Source: Myxococcota bacterium (GTDB taxonomy: Bacteria; Myxococcota_A; Polyangia; JAAYKL01). Taken from it: a stretch of DNA of 64,000 nt. The notes under the pieces are model-generated. The model was not told the DNA's origin. It did no database searches and saw nothing but the letters and a program-made list of their open reading frames with translations. The position numbers were made by a program, and so were the translations under genes. Positions 9,972 to 19,751 of the stretch are shown piece by piece. Where the stretch lies: assembly GCA_028278265.1 (NCBI GenBank), contig JANQET010000197.1, positions 27,309 to 91,308 on the forward strand. Reading direction: 5' to 3'. Every line of letters begins with the position of its first letter. The stretch's first letter is position 1.

Positions 9972-11729
9972 ATGCCGGAAATCCATCTGAAAAGCAGTCC
10001 CGGTCGCCCTGGAGAGCAGGTGAACCGACTATTATGTTTGGCGCTGGTGCTCATTGTCGCGGTCGCCTGTGGCGAGAGCACAGAGGAGTCAACGCCGGAC
10101 GGGGGAGGGGGCGGAGACGCCGACACGGATACAGATGTTGATTCGGACACCGACGCGGATACGGACGCCGACACCGATGCGGATACGGACGCCGACACCG
10201 ATGCGGATGCGGACGCCGACACCGACGCGGATGCGGACGCCGACACCGACGCGGATGCGGACGCCGACACCGATGCCAATGGGGATGTGAATGTCTACCC
10301 CATTCTCCACGACGAGGTGTTGACCAATCCGGGAATGGGATTTGCGAATTTTCATTTCGGCTGGTGGTGCAATCTCCCGCCGATCAGTTTCACCCCGGCT
10401 GAGTGCGCCGAGCGGGTGGAGGCGAACTGGCCGGTCAACTATCCCGACGCGGGAACATCCTATTTTCGTTGGTTCTGGAGTGAACTGGAGCCGGTGCGCG
10501 GTGAAATCGATTTCGAGATGATCGACACCGCGATTCAATCGGCCAACGCCCTGGGTGAGACGCTCTCATTTCGCGTGATCACGATCAAAGAAAATGAGCT
10601 CGGTGTTCCGGACTGGTTGGTCGGCGCTCCTTACAATGTTCCCGGGGAGTCATTCGCCGGTACGTTTTGGCCGGATTACCGAAACGCCACTTTTTTGGCC
10701 GAGCACGAGCGCTTCATCGCGGCCCTGGGCGAGCGGTACAACGACCATCCCGGGATTGATCACGTCGATATCGGCACGGTCGGGTGTTACGGGGAGTGGA
10801 ACACGGCGTGCATCACGGGCGAGGACACTATTTTTGATATCCTCGATCCTCAGAACGACGCGGACTTTCAGGTCATCGCCGATGCGTATCGCACGATGAT
10901 CGATCACCACGCCGCAGCATTCCCTCAAACCCCGACGGTGATGTTGGGTATCGGCGTCGACTCGGACTGGGAAGTGGCGGTGATGCTCCACGCGATCGAT
11001 CAGGGGGCGGGGTGGCGAGTGGACTGTTGGGGAGACTGGGGCATCTGGGGCGATGCCTGGAACCACATGGAGGATCTCTATCCGGCGATGATCGCCAACG
11101 TCACGGCGCAAAATCCCGATTTTGTCGACGTTTGGAAAACGGCGCCGGTTCAGTTGGAGGTCTGCGGCACCATTGACCAATGGCAGGATATTTACGGTTG
11201 GTCTGCCCAGCCGCCGGACGGTAAAGTGTACAGGACATTTCAATGGGCCCTGGAGCAGCATGCATCTGTGCTGAACGGCAAGTTTCGCGCGCTGCCCGAT
11301 GCCTTCATGACCGAGCTCAACGAAATGCTGAGGAAGAACGGATACCGGCTGGTGATCGATCGGTTCAATCATTTCGGCGAGGTGCGCGCCGGCGAACAGA
11401 CCGAGTTCTACACCAACTGGCGCAACATCGGCGTGGCGCCCAGCTATCGACCGCGGACGGTAACTTATCGTCTGCGCAACGCCACCGCCGAGCGAACGTT
11501 CGCCAGCCCATCGGACATTCGAACCTGGTTGCCGGGATCCTGGCCGGTCAGGGATCAGGTGACGATTCCCGCAGATCTGGCACCGGGCACCTATTGGATC
11601 GACATCGGCCTGCTCGATCGCGCCGGGACAAATCCGACCACTCAACCGCTGCCCCCACTCTACCTGGGTATCGGTGGCCGGCAAGCGGATGGGTGGTACC
11701 AGCTTTCCGAGCTCACCGTCACAGACTGA
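9972..11729 (+). CDS. DUF4832-domain lipoprotein with Asp-rich linker
   Basis: The protein has a lipoprotein signal (LLCLALVLIVAVACG), then roughly 60 residues of alternating Asp with Thr/Ala (linker), then a large domain starting VYPILHDEVLTNPGMGFANF. The sequence contains SYFRWFWSELEPVRGEIDF, HVDIGTVGCYGEWNT and a C-terminal beta domain (YRLRNATAERTF, LAPGTYWIDIGLLDRAG). This is the DUF4832 family, with a glycosidase-like TIM-barrel fold; a role in extracellular polysaccharide handling is inference. ATG 9972 has a good AAGGAGA site, but GTG 10020, preceded by GGAGAG, gives a more standard short signal peptide; both are possible. The linker DNA is a tandem hexanucleotide-like repeat. Confidence 0.8.
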   Translation: MPEIHLKSSPGRPGEQVNRLLCLALVLIVAVACGESTEESTPDGGGGGDADTDTDVDSDTDADTDADTDADTDADTDADADADTDADADADTDADADADTDANGDVNVYPILHDEVLTNPGMGFANFHFGWWCNLPPISFTPAECAERVEANWPVNYPDAGTSYFRWFWSELEPVRGEIDFEMIDTAIQSANALGETLSFRVITIKENELGVPDWLVGAPYNVPGESFAGTFWPDYRNATFLAEHERFIAALGERYNDHPGIDHVDIGTVGCYGEWNTACITGEDTIFDILDPQNDADFQVIADAYRTMIDHHAAAFPQTPTVMLGIGVDSDWEVAVMLHAIDQGAGWRVDCWGDWGIWGDAWNHMEDLYPAMIANVTAQNPDFVDVWKTAPVQLEVCGTIDQWQDIYGWSAQPPDGKVYRTFQWALEQHASVLNGKFRALPDAFMTELNEMLRKNGYRLVIDRFNHFGEVRAGEQTEFYTNWRNIGVAPSYRPRTVTYRLRNATAERTFASPSDIRTWLPGSWPVRDQVTIPADLAPGTYWIDIGLLDRAGTNPTTQPLPPLYLGIGGRQADGWYQLSELTVTD

Positions 11730-12457: not shown

Positions 12458-12904
12458 ATGTGCTCGAAGCTGTTCAGTAGGTCCGTCGCCATCATCTCTG
12501 TTGTCGGTTGTGGTTTGTTACTGTCCCGCTGTGCCACCGTAATACCAACAGATGTCGCGGATCCGGTTACTTTACCCGATCACGTCACGGACCTGGCCAT
12601 TTACGAAGCAAATGACCGCACGCGCGGTACTCTGCGGGAGAGCGAGACGACATACAATCTCACTGATCCGGGCGCGATTGCCGATCTCATTTCGGGTATC
12701 GATTTTGGTGAGGCGTTGGATTGCGCGGACATGGAGACAAAGAACAGTGCCTACCTCTATGTCAAATTCAAGGACAACAAGCGCAAAGTTTATACCCTGT
12801 TTCTGTTGAACAGTCACATTTCATTGAACAATGATCGAAGCACATGCTTTTTTGTCGGACCGGTAGCCCGCACCATAATAGAATCGAACAGTCAGTCTTC
12901 CTGA
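12458..12904 (+). CDS. small exported protein of unknown function
   Basis: The start at 12458 is chosen because a strong AAGGAGGG site lies at 12443-12450; an upstream ATG at 12410 has no such site. The signal region is AIISVVGCGLLLSRCA; the Cys could be lipidated, but Arg precedes it, which is not a canonical lipobox. The mature part of about 120 residues has Cys near DCADMETKN and STCFFVG that could pair. No family is recognised. Confidence 0.65.
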   Translation: MCSKLFSRSVAIISVVGCGLLLSRCATVIPTDVADPVTLPDHVTDLAIYEANDRTRGTLRESETTYNLTDPGAIADLISGIDFGEALDCADMETKNSAYLYVKFKDNKRKVYTLFLLNSHISLNNDRSTCFFVGPVARTIIESNSQSS

Positions 12905-12973: not shown

Positions 12974-15118
12974 ATGACCCACGAATCGAAACCAATCGCC
13001 ATTCTCGCACTATTCATTGTTTGCGTCGCGATACCGTTGGTACCGGCGCCTGCAGCAGCCGATGAATTGACCATCGTGGTGGTGGAAACCAGCACGGATC
13101 CGAATGCCAAGACAAACACAACGAGTAATCTGCGCAACCTTCCCCGAGGCGGAATAGCTGTCCGGGCCTCAACTCTCGACGAGGCGGAAGGAAAAATCAT
13201 CGGCAAGCTGGGCACGGGGGATTGCATCAAAAGACTCGATTTCAGAGGTCACGGTGCACCGGGGGTGCAGGGTGTCGGTGATGGCGTGGGCTACGATGGC
13301 GACAAGCACATCAATACGGGCAACCAGTCCAAGTGGACTGAAAAGCTCGAGGAGTTGGAAGGCAGATTTTGTGAAAACGCCGTCGTAAATCTCTGGGGCT
13401 GCAATGTGGGAAGCTGCACCAAGGGAGCGGAAAAGCTCAAGGCGATCGCCGACCGGTTCAACGTCACTGCGCGAGGTGCGGTGGATACGGTATCTGCCGG
13501 CAAACAAGAGCGCTACAAGGGGCCAATCCAAGAAGCCAAGCCGGACCGGCCGGCTCCGCAATGCATGATTGCAACCATCAAAAAGGCGAAGAAGAAAGAG
13601 GACAAGATCGACCCGCCGGCCCCTGAGCAAGCGCCAGAGATTGTCTCGCCGCTCACTTATGCCCCGTTCCTGGTCGGACAGCCGATCACATTCAAGATCG
13701 GTGCATATTCCCACGCACACGAGGTAAAGTGGCGTGTTTCACAAAGTGAAGCTGAAGGGTCGGGTGATTCGTTTACTTTTGTTCCATCCGTCCCCGGTAA
13801 CTTCCACGTGACCGCGTCGTTCGAAGACAAAGAGCATACCGTCATCGTCTTGGTCCGTTCAGGTGAGATCGAACCGGAGCCGTGGACTCAAGTCGACGTA
13901 TTGGAACCGATGGAGGGCTTTACGGATCTGTTGGGATTTCGCCGAATCCAGATCGATCACAGCGGTCCAGCCGACATCACGACCGAATCCCCGTCGATGG
14001 CATTTCTAGTGGGGCAGCCCGTCGGATCAGCGGTATCAATACACGTTGAGGCCCCGATTGCGAATGAGGAGGGCCACATCACAAGTGTCTACGAGGCCGA
14101 GCTAACTGTGACTTTCGAACGATCCACGCTGCAGGTCATCGAAGTGCCCTTGGTGCCGGATACGGTCAATGAAATACGTTTTCAGGGTTTCGACGAAAAG
14201 CTCGGTAACAGCAGCCCGGTGTTTTTTACGCTCGCTCATGTCAAACCGCTGCCTGACATCCCAGTGGTATTTCAAAAGAGAGCTGGTGGTCGAGAGACGG
14301 AAATAACCGGGGCCGATCTGAGACGAGCACTGAGGAGCTATATCAACAACGCCAAGAACGTGAGCAGGGAGTTGGCCGCCTATCTCAACGATGTGGTCTT
14401 GGCGGTTGTGAATAAGAGCGGCACGGACCGGCGCACCGCTCGGATACGGATCAAGGTGCAAGAGCTGCTCAGATTGCTTCGGCTGTACAGGCGTCAAACC
14501 GATCCCGAGAAAAAGGCCAAAATGGAAGAGGAGCTGAAGCGGGAATACGTCAACCTGCTGCTGCACGAAGCCGGACACGCCAAAGCGGTCAGGAGAGGCG
14601 TCGCCGGTCCTTCAACGCCTGAGAACACCGAAGAGATGCGCAACAGGAAAGAGATGATCAATCGACTGATCGATCTCCTCGGCCGCCTGAAGGAGCGGGA
14701 GGGAGGCGCCCCGCCAACCAAAGCGCCGGATGGGGCCGGGCTGGACAATCAGTCGGCGACCACCTGGCTCGAACGGATCAGGTACATCCTCTTTAGACAG
14801 GCGGAGCAGATCCAAAAATATCTGCGTCGCACGGATCAAGAATTCAAGCGAGACGAAGCAGACCTGAGTAGCGCCTACCGGAGACTGCAACGGGATCTGA
14901 GGCGTTTAAATCGAGACAACAGCAAAACCCAGGCTCAAAAGAGGACAGAAGGGCAGCGGCGATTCGACAGGTTCAAGCGGGAACAACAAGCTCGGATCAG
15001 CAGATTGGCCGACAAGTGCGGGAAAGAATACTATTTCACGTTCTACCCCGCCACGCGGTTCGTCAAAAAGAACAAACGGTTGTCCAGGAGTTTCAACGGG
15101 AAACCGATCCCCCAGTGA
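12974..15118 (+). CDS. secreted protein with caspase-like His/Cys dyad and HExxH motif
   Basis: ATG 12974 is preceded by GGGAGGAG and gives a signal peptide ending APAAADE. Residues 30-175 resemble a DUF4347-like clan CD fold: LDFRGHGAPGVQGVGDG with His93 and VVNLWGCNVGSCTKGAEKL with Cys143, spaced like the catalytic dyad of caspase/gingipain-type proteases. Two or three beta-sandwich (Ig-like) segments follow (LVGQPITFKIGAYSHAHEVK). The C-terminal third is charged and helical, with a LLLHEAGHAKAVRRG segment, a zinc-metallopeptidase-type HExxH at residues 531-535, followed by long coiled coil (AYRRLQRDLRRLNRDNSKTQ). Both activities are inferred from motifs; whether the HEAGH helix is catalytic is uncertain. 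It has 714 residues. Confidence 0.7.
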   Translation: MTHESKPIAILALFIVCVAIPLVPAPAAADELTIVVVETSTDPNAKTNTTSNLRNLPRGGIAVRASTLDEAEGKIIGKLGTGDCIKRLDFRGHGAPGVQGVGDGVGYDGDKHINTGNQSKWTEKLEELEGRFCENAVVNLWGCNVGSCTKGAEKLKAIADRFNVTARGAVDTVSAGKQERYKGPIQEAKPDRPAPQCMIATIKKAKKKEDKIDPPAPEQAPEIVSPLTYAPFLVGQPITFKIGAYSHAHEVKWRVSQSEAEGSGDSFTFVPSVPGNFHVTASFEDKEHTVIVLVRSGEIEPEPWTQVDVLEPMEGFTDLLGFRRIQIDHSGPADITTESPSMAFLVGQPVGSAVSIHVEAPIANEEGHITSVYEAELTVTFERSTLQVIEVPLVPDTVNEIRFQGFDEKLGNSSPVFFTLAHVKPLPDIPVVFQKRAGGRETEITGADLRRALRSYINNAKNVSRELAAYLNDVVLAVVNKSGTDRRTARIRIKVQELLRLLRLYRRQTDPEKKAKMEEELKREYVNLLLHEAGHAKAVRRGVAGPSTPENTEEMRNRKEMINRLIDLLGRLKEREGGAPPTKAPDGAGLDNQSATTWLERIRYILFRQAEQIQKYLRRTDQEFKRDEADLSSAYRRLQRDLRRLNRDNSKTQAQKRTEGQRRFDRFKREQQARISRLADKCGKEYYFTFYPATRFVKKNKRLSRSFNGKPIPQ

Positions 15119-15905: not shown

Positions 15906-17789
15906 ATGATCGTACAGCGACCTGCGACCGAGATTCAGGCATCAGCCCACCGAAGAGATGATGCAGAAGATGGTACTGGCCACGATAGAAACTGGTTTGA
16001 CCGACTGATGGAGAACGAGATTATCCGTCAATTGCCCAACCACTTGAGGCAGTATGTGGTCGATCAGAACCATGGGGCCTACACCGCTGCCGACCACGCG
16101 GTCTGGCGCTATGTGCTGCGGCAGAGCTGTTCATTCCTCAAAGACCACGCCCACCGGATCTACCTCGACGGATTGGCCCGAACGGGTCTGCGCATCGACG
16201 CCATTCCATCGATCGAGGAGATGAACCAGATTCTGTCCCGCATCGGTTGGGCTGCCGTGCCGGTCAACGGGTTCATCCCCCCGTCGGCGTTCATGGAGTT
16301 CCAGGCCCACCGCACATTGGTCATCGCGGCGGATATGCGCCAATTGAACCATATCGAGTACACCCCATCCCCGGACATCATTCACGAGGCCGCCGGCCAT
16401 GCCCCGATCATTGCCGATCCTCAGTACGCCGAGTATTTGCGGCTGTTCGGTCAAGTGGGCAGCAAGGCGATGTCCTCCAAAAAGGACTACGAGCTCTATG
16501 AGGCGATTCGGCGGCTGTCGATCCTCAAGGAATCTCCTGGGGCCGATCCCCAGGAGATCGAAGCGGCCAATCGGGATCTATTGGACAAGCAGCGCAATCT
16601 GGGCGAGCCGTCCGAGATGGCCCTGCTCACCCGGCTCCATTGGTGGACCGTGGAGTACGGGCTGATCGGCGAGATGGCCAACCCGCGGCTCTACGGGGCC
16701 GCCCTGTTGTCCTCGATCGGCGAGTCCGCTTCTTGTTTATCGGATGAGGTGAAAAAAATTCCCTACAGCCTGGATGCATTGAACTACCCCTTTGATATTA
16801 CCACCAAGCAACCCCAGCTCTTTGTCACACCGAACTTTCCCTATCTGAACGAGGTGCTGACCGAGTTTGCCGACACCATGTCGTTCAGCCGAGGGGGATG
16901 TGCGGGATTGAACACGGCGGTCGACTGCGGCAACACGGCGACGGCAGTCTACAGCTCCGGGCTCGAAGTGTCCGGGACGTTCGCCGAGGTGCTCTGCGAC
17001 GAGTGGCGCCGTCCGATACTCCTGCGCACCACCGGTCCCACTGCGCTCGCCGTCGAGGGTCGCGAGATCTCCGGGTGCGGTAAATCCCGATTTCCCGCGG
17101 GATTCGTCTCACCCATCGGTATGATGCGCCACTCGACGACGCCCCTCGAATCGCTCAGTGACGGGGAGCTCGCCTCACTCGGCATCGCGACAAACGCCGA
17201 TCTCAGGCTCGACTACGATTCCGGCATTGCGGTTACCGGTCGACTGGAGCGGATCAACCGCGTAGGTGACAATGTGGTTTCGTTGACCGTCGACCGCTGC
17301 CGGATAGGCTTCAATGACAACCCATTGGTCGAGCTCAGCGATCAACCGCTCGAGATCGCCGTGGGGGAACGAATCGTATCGGTGTACGCCGGAGCAGCGG
17401 ACAAGGACGCCTTCGAGCAACCGTCCCGGGTCTCGAATCGGCGCACGATCAAGGTCTGCTATACCGAGCAGCAACAACGGCTGCACGATTTGTATCAGCA
17501 GATCAGACAACAACGGGAGGGGGAGATGAACGAGGAAGTTTTGACCGGAATAGCCCGCGAGGTGGAGCGGGATCATCCGGACGACTGGTTGGCCCTGATG
17601 GAAATCCTCGAGCTGCTGGAGCGACACGATTCAAATGCAGGGCTCGCCTTCCACATTCGGCAGAAACTGAGCGCTCGGGCGGCAACCGAGCAACAATACG
17701 AAAAGCTGATCGCCGATGGGCTGAGACTCATCGACACCAACGAACTGGCCGGGATCGACGAACAGAACAAAAAGGAACGAACAACCTAG
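15906..17789 (+). CDS. phhA: aromatic amino acid hydroxylase (long phenylalanine-4-hydroxylase family form)
   Basis: The 627-residue protein contains the tetrahydropterin-dependent monooxygenase core: DIIHEAAGHAP gives iron ligands His160 and His165, and LHWWTVEYGLIGE gives the third ligand Glu250. The family uses Fe(II), O2 and a tetrahydropterin to hydroxylate phenylalanine (or tyrosine/tryptophan). It is much longer than the compact proteobacterial enzyme of about 260-300 residues. The C-terminal half (from about residue 330) is the extra region known from long bacterial forms, ending in a helical tail. The neighbours supply the pterin cycle: a carbinolamine dehydratase at 17977 and a pyruvoyl-tetrahydropterin synthase homologue at 18501. 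Substrate is not decided by sequence alone. Confidence 0.9.
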   Translation: MIVQRPATEIQASAHRRDDAEDGTGHDRNWFDRLMENEIIRQLPNHLRQYVVDQNHGAYTAADHAVWRYVLRQSCSFLKDHAHRIYLDGLARTGLRIDAIPSIEEMNQILSRIGWAAVPVNGFIPPSAFMEFQAHRTLVIAADMRQLNHIEYTPSPDIIHEAAGHAPIIADPQYAEYLRLFGQVGSKAMSSKKDYELYEAIRRLSILKESPGADPQEIEAANRDLLDKQRNLGEPSEMALLTRLHWWTVEYGLIGEMANPRLYGAALLSSIGESASCLSDEVKKIPYSLDALNYPFDITTKQPQLFVTPNFPYLNEVLTEFADTMSFSRGGCAGLNTAVDCGNTATAVYSSGLEVSGTFAEVLCDEWRRPILLRTTGPTALAVEGREISGCGKSRFPAGFVSPIGMMRHSTTPLESLSDGELASLGIATNADLRLDYDSGIAVTGRLERINRVGDNVVSLTVDRCRIGFNDNPLVELSDQPLEIAVGERIVSVYAGAADKDAFEQPSRVSNRRTIKVCYTEQQQRLHDLYQQIRQQREGEMNEEVLTGIAREVERDHPDDWLALMEILELLERHDSNAGLAFHIRQKLSARAATEQQYEKLIADGLRLIDTNELAGIDEQNKKERTT

Positions 17790-17976: not shown

Positions 17977-18309
17977 ATGGAACCGTTGACCAGCAAGAAA
18001 TGCGTCCCGTGTGAGGGGGACCTCGAGCCACTGACCAGAGCGCAATTTTCCCACCACCTGAATCAAGTCCGCGATTGGACTGTCGTGGAGAGCGACACCA
18101 AACTGGAGCGGGAATTCGAGTTCGGGGACTTCAACCAGGCGTTGGCCTTTGTCAACGGCGTGGGGGAGATCGCCGAGTCAGAAGGTCACCATCCCAACAT
18201 CTACCTGCACAGTTGGAACAAGGTCAAATTAACCGTCTACACCCACGCCATCGGCGGCTTGTCACTCAACGATTTTGTTCTCGCCGCGAAGATCGACGCA
18301 GTTGGATAG
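17977..18309 (+). CDS. phhB: 4a-hydroxytetrahydrobiopterin dehydratase (pterin-4a-carbinolamine dehydratase)
   Basis: The 110-residue protein matches the PCD/DCoH family over its whole length: AQFSHHLNQVRDWTVVE, FGDFNQALAFVNGVGEIAES, then the active-site block EGHHPNIYLHSWNKVKLTVY with its two adjacent His, and THAIGGLSLNDFVLAAKID. It dehydrates the 4a-hydroxy-pterin released by the aromatic hydroxylase encoded just upstream, allowing cofactor recycling. A GGAGGA site lies just before the ATG. A repeat element sits between it and phhA, but both are on the same strand and belong to one pathway. Confidence 0.95.
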   Translation: MEPLTSKKCVPCEGDLEPLTRAQFSHHLNQVRDWTVVESDTKLEREFEFGDFNQALAFVNGVGEIAESEGHHPNIYLHSWNKVKLTVYTHAIGGLSLNDFVLAAKIDAVG

Positions 18310-18500: not shown

Positions 18501-19751
18501 CTATCGCCTCAGGGTGAAGCGGTTGTTGTCGGTCTCCCAAAGGCGCAGGCGAATCAGCTGGTGTGCCAATCGAGGCTCGAGTTTGGCCCACAGCAGCCGC
18601 ACGATATTTTCCCCGGTAGACGGCTGATCGGTAAACTCGGCCACCTCCTGGTCGAGGTGTCGATAGCGCCAGTCGTCGAGTACACCGTCCAACTCCCGAT
18701 TCAACCCGACCAGATCAGCGACCCTACCGGTGCGCGAATCCAGCGGACCGGTGACCGTGCAGGCGACCCGGTAGTCGTGGCCGTGGCCCGCCGGGTTGTT
18801 GCATTTCGAATAGATGTCCTGGTTCTCTGCCGCGGAAAGATGGGGCGAATGCAGCCGATGGGCCGCCGTGAAACCGGACCGGACGATCATGCGCGTTTCC
18901 CCGGTCTGGCTGTGTTCCACGGCGAAAGCGGGGTTTTCGTGGAGGGTGACGCGACTGGCGCTCGAGGCGGCGTGAAGCCTATCGAACAACAGCCCGGCCA
19001 GTACCTCCGTCGTGTTGGGTTGCGCCTTGAACGCGTCCAGCTCGACCGACAGGTTGCGATGGTCTAGCTCGTCGCGCAGGCGATCGAGAGATTGTCGCGC
19101 CGCTGCTTCGTCGATGAGCTGACCCGTGCGCTGATCGGGCTGACCCGACCAGGTGGCCCGCAATCGGTAGTGGTGTCCATGGCCTGCCGGTGATGCGGCG
19201 CGGCCGAACAAGTCCCGGTTTTGCTCATCGGTCAACCCGGGCACATGGGTACGGCGCGCAGCGGAGAAATCGATCCACAGGTGGCGCTCGACCGACCCGT
19301 TCGAAAAAGCGGTCGCTTCGCTTGAGGCCGATTCGGACAAGTGGCAGACCACCGGTTGGGCAGGGCTGTCGGTGAACAGCGCCCTCGCTTCCTCGAGCAG
19401 GGCCAGGGCCAGGTTTTCGGTGGTCGGATTGATCCGGTCGAACGGCGGGGTATCCCCGTTGAGGAACCGGTGATCGAATCGGCGCTCGAGCAGCCCGCGG
19501 ACGCGGGTTTTAATCTCGGCGAGATTGACCATCATGCCGGTGCGCCGATCCACCTCGCCCTTGAATCCGAAGTTGGCGACAAAGTTGTGACCGTGGCCGT
19601 ACCGACCGTCCGCTTCACGGCCAAAGGTTGACCGGTTTTGGTCATCGGACCAGCCCGGCACACCCAGCCGATGGGAGGCACTGAAGGAGAATCGTCTGCT
19701 AACGGTCAGTCGCATCGTCCCTGTTGTATGACCGATCGTCGCCGAGTGCAA
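18501..19751 (-). CDS. triple-domain 6-pyruvoyl-tetrahydropterin synthase/QueD family protein
   Basis: Three consecutive PTPS domains lie in one 416-residue chain. Domain 1 (about 10-135) has FSASHRL and YGHGHNF; domain 2 (about 145-280) has SPAGHGHHYR but Arg in place of the first zinc His (WIDFSAARRTHVP); domain 3 (about 285-416) has FTAAHRLHSP and CNNPAGHGHDYR, with both zinc sites and the catalytic Cys. Domains 1 and 2 lack that Cys, so only domain 3 looks fully competent. The usual enzyme is a single domain of about 120-140 residues forming oligomers. PTPS catalyses the second step of tetrahydrobiopterin synthesis from dihydroneopterin triphosphate. Its position opposite phhA and phhB suggests supply of the hydroxylase cofactor. 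Confidence 0.88.
   Translation of the reverse strand: MHSATIGHTTGTMRLTVSRRFSFSASHRLGVPGWSDDQNRSTFGREADGRYGHGHNFVANFGFKGEVDRRTGMMVNLAEIKTRVRGLLERRFDHRFLNGDTPPFDRINPTTENLALALLEEARALFTDSPAQPVVCHLSESASSEATAFSNGSVERHLWIDFSAARRTHVPGLTDEQNRDLFGRAASPAGHGHHYRLRATWSGQPDQRTGQLIDEAAARQSLDRLRDELDHRNLSVELDAFKAQPNTTEVLAGLLFDRLHAASSASRVTLHENPAFAVEHSQTGETRMIVRSGFTAAHRLHSPHLSAAENQDIYSKCNNPAGHGHDYRVACTVTGPLDSRTGRVADLVGLNRELDGVLDDWRYRHLDQEVAEFTDQPSTGENIVRLLWAKLEPRLAHQLIRLRLWETDNNRFTLRR

What the first reader, a model, noticed from the sequence alone, without database searches (positions are those of the whole stretch)
12974..15118. Caspase-like dyad and HExxH in one exported protein
His93 (RGHGAPG) and Cys143 (LWGCNVG) match the clan CD arrangement, and HEAGH at 531-535 matches a zinc peptidase helix, separated by Ig-like domains. 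Two independent hydrolase signatures in one chain are unusual. The HEAGH lies in a coiled-coil-rich region, so it may be coincidental.
Basis: partly seen in the sequence, partly recalled or inferred. Interest (0 to 1): 0.65.

Follow-up and report, generated by a model that had tools for sequence, protein, structure and literature searches.

The report
Exported DUF4347-like cysteine-protease-type protein
An environmental bacterium encodes an exported protein whose front end carries the conserved His/Cys pair of the caspase-like (TcdB-CPD-like) DUF4347 family, while the second 'zinc protease' motif near its back end has no relatives to support it and is most likely incidental.

Summary
Window 12974-15118 (+) encodes 714 aa with a signal peptide, His93 (RGHGAPG), Cys143 (LWGCNVG) and HEAGH at 531-535. 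The His/Cys half of the reading holds up. Residues ~30-190 are a divergent DUF4347-like domain, below Pfam's cut-off (E 4e-4, 20.5 vs 24.6 bits). An HMM of 33 DUF4347 domains found with Pfam alone, without using this protein, picks this frame out of 552 at E 7e-7, and His93 and Cys143 are identical in 33/33. A profile of relatives weakly reaches PDB 9QPE chain G (E 0.014), the type VI effector Tce1, described as a TcdB-CPD-like putative cysteine protease; His aligns with His and Cys with Cys. The metallopeptidase half is not supported. HEAGH lies in an Arg/Lys-rich, predicted-helical tail with no detectable homologue, no zincin-family match and no identifiable third ligand. Its conservation cannot be tested. 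Single-sequence structure models were too weak to use. Most likely this is an exported clan-CD-type cysteine peptidase domain on Ig-like spacers with a basic helical tail: a divergent member of a known kind of protein, of modest interest.

The parts
12974..15118 (+). CDS, 714 aa exported protein P0001 (orphan as a whole)
   Evidence: open frame with RBS GGGAGGAG upstream of the ATG; no full-length relative found
12974..13060 (+). signal peptide, residues 1-29 (inferred)
   Evidence: direct reading of MTHESKPIAILALFIVCVAIPLVPAPAAA|DE; no predictor was available
13061..13543 (+). DUF4347-like, caspase/CPD-type domain, residues 30-190
   Evidence: PF14252 E 4.2e-4, below cut-off; independent HMM E 7.4e-7; profile match to PDB 9QPE chain G, E 0.014
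13250..13252 (+). codon of His93, putative catalytic base
   Evidence: identical in 33/33 independently found DUF4347 domains and invariant in alignment A1
13400..13402 (+). codon of Cys143, putative nucleophile
   Evidence: identical in 33/33 and invariant in alignment A1
13640..14280 (+). beta-rich, Ig/PKD-like spacer region, residues ~223-435
   Evidence: predicted strands in a low-confidence model; PKD E 0.11, below cut-off; pI 4.65
14291..15115 (+). basic helical tail, residues 440-714 (pI 10.5, 24% Arg+Lys)
   Evidence: no homologue
14564..14578 (+). HEAGH, residues 531-535; probably incidental
   Evidence: motif confirmed; no family match, no homologue

Best explanation
An exported protein built as: Sec signal peptide, then a DUF4347-like domain of the caspase/CPD (clan-CD-type) kind with an intact His93/Cys143 dyad, then an acidic beta-rich Ig/PKD-like spacer, then an Arg/Lys-rich helical tail. 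Proposed mechanism: after export His93 activates Cys143, which attacks a peptide bond, either of an extracellular or periplasmic target or within its own chain (the large clostridial toxin CPDs work on their own chain). The spacer and basic tail position or anchor the enzyme. Shown: the reading frame, the motifs, the homology, and invariance of His and Cys across the family. Inferred: the fold, export, peptidase activity, substrate and anchoring. HEAGH is most likely an incidental pentapeptide in a helix.
For: Pfam DUF4347 is the best family for the N-domain. An HMM of 33 DUF4347 domains found with PF14252 in the phylum, not chosen with this protein, gives E 7.4e-7, with H and C invariant. A smaller independent set of 8 gives E 3.1e-4. 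Distant relatives L016, L017, L023, L043, L033, L019 keep both residues. A genuine Peptidase_C14 protein (L025, Pfam E 1.9e-14) came up weakly with the N-domain and aligns H-to-H and C-to-C. Profile A1 hits PDB 9QPE chain G, the complex of Hcp3 with Tce1, whose His186/Cys240 superpose on the TcdB CPD dyad (PMC13323088). In the low-confidence N-domain model, strands end 1-2 residues before H93 and C143, as in caspase-like folds.
Against: Pfam score is below the curated cut-off. The single-sequence models are poor, and Foldseek finds only generic Rossmann-like folds. The whole protein is an orphan, so conservation of its architecture cannot be shown. Peptidase activity of DUF4347 proteins is only indirectly supported: Tce2 toxicity in yeast needs its predicted active site, and Tce1 was not toxic in yeast (PMC13323088).
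Confidence: 0.72

Rival explanations
1. Dual-enzyme protein: the DUF4347-like cysteine peptidase plus a second, zinc-dependent peptidase domain in the C-terminal helices using H531/E532/H535 and a downstream acid (for example E554).
For: The only two His residues in residues 440-714 form HExxH; shuffle chance 0.05% in that region. HEAGH also occurs in real zincins such as FtsH (recalled). E554 sits at HExxH-x18-E, the spacing of M1 gluzincins (spacing, comparison recalled).
Against: No Pfam, NCBIfam or PDB match to any zincin. No homologue. E550, E553, E554, E560 all lie nearby, so some acid at a usable spacing is expected. Lys follows HEAGHA where the stricter zincin consensus has a hydrophobic residue (recalled). 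The tail is hydrophilic (gravy -1.08) and very basic.
Confidence: 0.06
2. Pseudoenzyme: the DUF4347-like domain keeps the fold and dyad but acts as an adhesion or scaffolding module.
For: Canonical DUF4347 domains in this phylum sit in large, adhesin-like open frames (up to 7967 aa). No activity has been shown for Tce1, the only member with a solved structure that was found.
Against: Strict invariance of both catalytic-type residues in 33/33 divergent members argues for selection on catalysis.
Confidence: 0.2
3. The HG...GC similarity is chance and the domain is unrelated to DUF4347 or clan CD.
For: The Pfam hit is sub-threshold and only partial (profile positions 48-120 of 164).
Against: The independent HMM gives E 7.4e-7, with the next frame at 0.94. 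Similarity extends beyond the motifs, e.g. the Gly after the Cys segment (G151) is shared by 30 of 33.
Confidence: 0.04

Closest known systems
DUF4347 (Pfam PF14252) domains of the same phylum, e.g. L071, L076, L070
   Same: HG...GC motifs, order of predicted strands and helices, G151 after the Cys segment. In L070 the domain follows a signal-peptide-like N-terminus (read by eye) and precedes a long non-cytoplasmic-looking region.
   Different: This protein scores below the Pfam cut-off, has an insertion between the His and Cys segments and carries a unique basic helical tail.
Tce1 (PA0256) and Tce2 (PA2372), H3-T6SS effectors of Pseudomonas aeruginosa; PDB 9QPE
   Same: DUF4347 domain (Tce1) with a His/Cys dyad that the authors align to the TcdB CPD (PMC13323088). 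Profile A1 aligns His to His and Cys to Cys.
   Different: Tce1/Tce2 are Hcp cargo; here there is a Sec-type signal peptide, and no type VI gene was identified next to it, although only a few neighbours were checked. The link is weak (E 0.014).
Bacterial Peptidase_C14 caspase homologues (e.g. L025)
   Same: Same His-then-Cys order at strand ends; L025 aligns over the dyad.
   Different: No Peptidase_C14 match for this protein; the Cys context is GCN, not DSCFSG.
HExxH zincins (e.g. M41 FtsH, M1)
   Same: HEAGH pentapeptide on a predicted helix.
   Different: No family match, no homologue, no established third ligand, Lys at the last consensus position.

Membership tests
DUF4347 (PF14252) | score above Pfam's curated cut-off (24.6 bits) | tested here: not met
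   16.8 bits whole protein, 20.5 bits for the domain alone
DUF4347 (PF14252) | homology to independently found members | tested here: met
   HMM of 33 members: E 7.4e-7 among 552 frames; HMM of 8 members: E 3.1e-4
DUF4347 (PF14252) | invariant His (HG) and Cys (C[NDE]) | tested here: met
   H93 and C143 match 33/33
Clan CD cysteine peptidases (C14/C80-like) | His before Cys, each at the end of a core strand of a caspase-like sheet | tested here: inconclusive
   order and predicted strands fit, but the model is low confidence and Foldseek gives no clan CD hit among the PDB matches listed
Clan CD cysteine peptidases (C14/C80-like) | sequence match to a recognised peptidase family | tested here: not met
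   no C14 or C80 match for this protein; one member of A1 has a weak C80 match, E 0.028
Clan CD cysteine peptidases (C14/C80-like) | cysteine-dependent peptidase activity | not testable with these tools
   needs biochemistry
Zincin (HExxH) metallopeptidase | HExxH | tested here: met
   HEAGH 531-535
Zincin (HExxH) metallopeptidase | third zinc ligand in a recognised spacing and motif | tested here: inconclusive
   several acids nearby (E550, E553, E554, E560) with no family motif
Zincin (HExxH) metallopeptidase | conservation of the motif among homologues | tested here: inconclusive
   no homologue of the region found, so it cannot be tested
Zincin (HExxH) metallopeptidase | match to any zincin family or structure | tested here: not met
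   none in Pfam, NCBIfam or PDB sequences

The most novel reading that the evidence does not exclude
A single exported polypeptide with two unrelated peptidase sites, a DUF4347-type cysteine site and an orphan zinc site of a so far undescribed helical zincin family in the basic tail.
Probability: 0.05. Interest if true: 0.6.

Novelty: new member of a known kind. Interest (0 to 1): 0.27.

Why it matters
DUF4347 is still labelled 'unknown function' in Pfam although a 2026 structure places a member among TcdB-CPD-like cysteine proteases. Invariance of the His/Cys pair in 33 of 33 divergent family members from one phylum, including in large adhesin-like proteins, suggests that the family at large is a set of exported or injected cysteine peptidases. 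The specific protein here is a divergent, otherwise ordinary example.

Tried and rejected
Full-length homologue searches in 59 relatives, 379 phylum genomes, GTDB genome contigs, viral contigs, phages and plasmids found nothing. Tail homologue searches gave only low-complexity or wrong-frame noise. The full-length AlphaFold model (pLDDT 39) and the N-domain model (pLDDT 48, pTM 0.47) were too poor for fold matching; Foldseek hits were generic Rossmann and receiver-type folds. The profile from relatives found mostly with this protein (E 1.8e-17) was set aside as circular and replaced by independent sets. PADLOC matches were coiled-coil noise.

Full report
What was checked. The frame 12974-15118 (+) encodes 714 aa, with a good ribosome-binding sequence before the ATG. 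The N-terminus reads as a classical cleavable signal peptide ending APAAA|DE (by eye), so the DUF4347-like domain begins directly after the cleavage site. The protein is single-copy in its genome.

The His/Cys half. Pfam's only sensible N-terminal match is DUF4347, PF14252, at E 4.2e-4 for the isolated domain, below the curated cut-off. Searching the class with the N-domain alone brought up weak hits; among them L016, L017, L023, L043, L033 and L019 carry the H...GC pair, while most of the other weak hits are unrelated noise. One further weak hit, L025, is a genuine Peptidase_C14 caspase homologue that aligns His to His and Cys to Cys. Because those relatives were selected with this protein, I repeated the test with domains found by the Pfam model alone in the genomes of the class and phylum samples. 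From 33 such domains an HMM was built; it ranks this frame first of 552 frames in the window at E 7.4e-7 (next 0.94). In the joint alignment the His is identical in 33/33, the Cys in 33/33, and G151 in 30/33. A smaller independent set of eight gives E 3.1e-4. A profile of nine sequences weakly matches PDB 9QPE chain G, E 0.014, with His on His and Cys on Cys. That entry is the Hcp3 complex with Tce1 (PA0256). The authors report structural similarity of Tce1 and Tce2 to the TcdB cysteine protease domain, with His186/Cys240 (Tce1) and His65/Cys115 (Tce2) at the dyad, and that Tce2 toxicity in yeast depends on its predicted active site (PMC13323088). The clan-CD-like reading of His93/Cys143 is therefore well supported, while fold and activity remain inferred: single-sequence models were poor and Foldseek was uninformative.

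The HEAGH half. The tail, residues 440-714, is 24% Arg+Lys with pI 10.5 and predicted helices. No homologue was found in 318 genomes of the class (tail) or 379 of the phylum (residues 440-600); the weak matches listed are noise on inspection. No zincin family or structure matches. HExxH arises in 1.6% of shuffles of the whole protein and in 0.05% of shuffles of the His-poor tail alone. [quoted passage not shown] E554 sits 18 residues after the second His, the M1-like spacing, but four Glu lie in that stretch, so this carries little weight. I rate a real zinc site at about 5%.

Function. Best reading: an exported, clan-CD-type cysteine peptidase domain carried on a beta-rich spacer and a basic helical tail that may bind anionic surfaces. 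Whether it cuts itself or another protein is open. The immediate neighbours give no clear partner: a small putative lipoprotein upstream (12458-12904) without a family, a DUF4832 protein, and a pterin/aromatic hydroxylase group downstream.

Novelty. DUF4347 domains that follow an export signal and precede long extracellular-looking regions occur elsewhere in the phylum (L070). This one is a divergent relative with a private tail; strictly it fails Pfam's cut-off, so it is called DUF4347-like rather than a formal member.

Noticed in passing
window 18501-19751 (-): One open frame holds three tandem 6-pyruvoyl-tetrahydropterin synthase (PTPS) domains (Pfam E 5e-65, three stretches), beside a Biopterin_H aromatic amino acid hydroxylase (15906-17789) and a small frame at 17977-18309 that reads by eye like pterin-4a-carbinolamine dehydratase: a likely pterin-dependent hydroxylase cluster with an unusual triplicated PTPS.
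   Followed up: no
window 15906-17789 (+): The biopterin-dependent hydroxylase frame is 627 aa, with a long extra C-terminal part beyond the catalytic domain matched by Pfam.
   Followed up: no
window 10116-10276 (+): A 24/48-base tandem repeat encodes an Asp/Ala/Thr-rich (DADTDADA...) linker in the DUF4832 protein of 9972-11729.
   Followed up: no
L002, L003, L005, L007, L008, L009, L074, L075, L077-L080: A well-conserved subfamily of DUF4347-like proteins (WGHGKWG...W[FL]RTCE..GA...GHTY[IV]IG), mostly 200-280 aa, is widespread in this phylum and may be a distinct, intracellular cysteine-dyad family.
   Followed up: partly
window 12458-12904 (+): Small putative lipoprotein without a Pfam family, 69 bases upstream and on the same strand; a possible operon partner of the DUF4347-like protein.
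   Followed up: no
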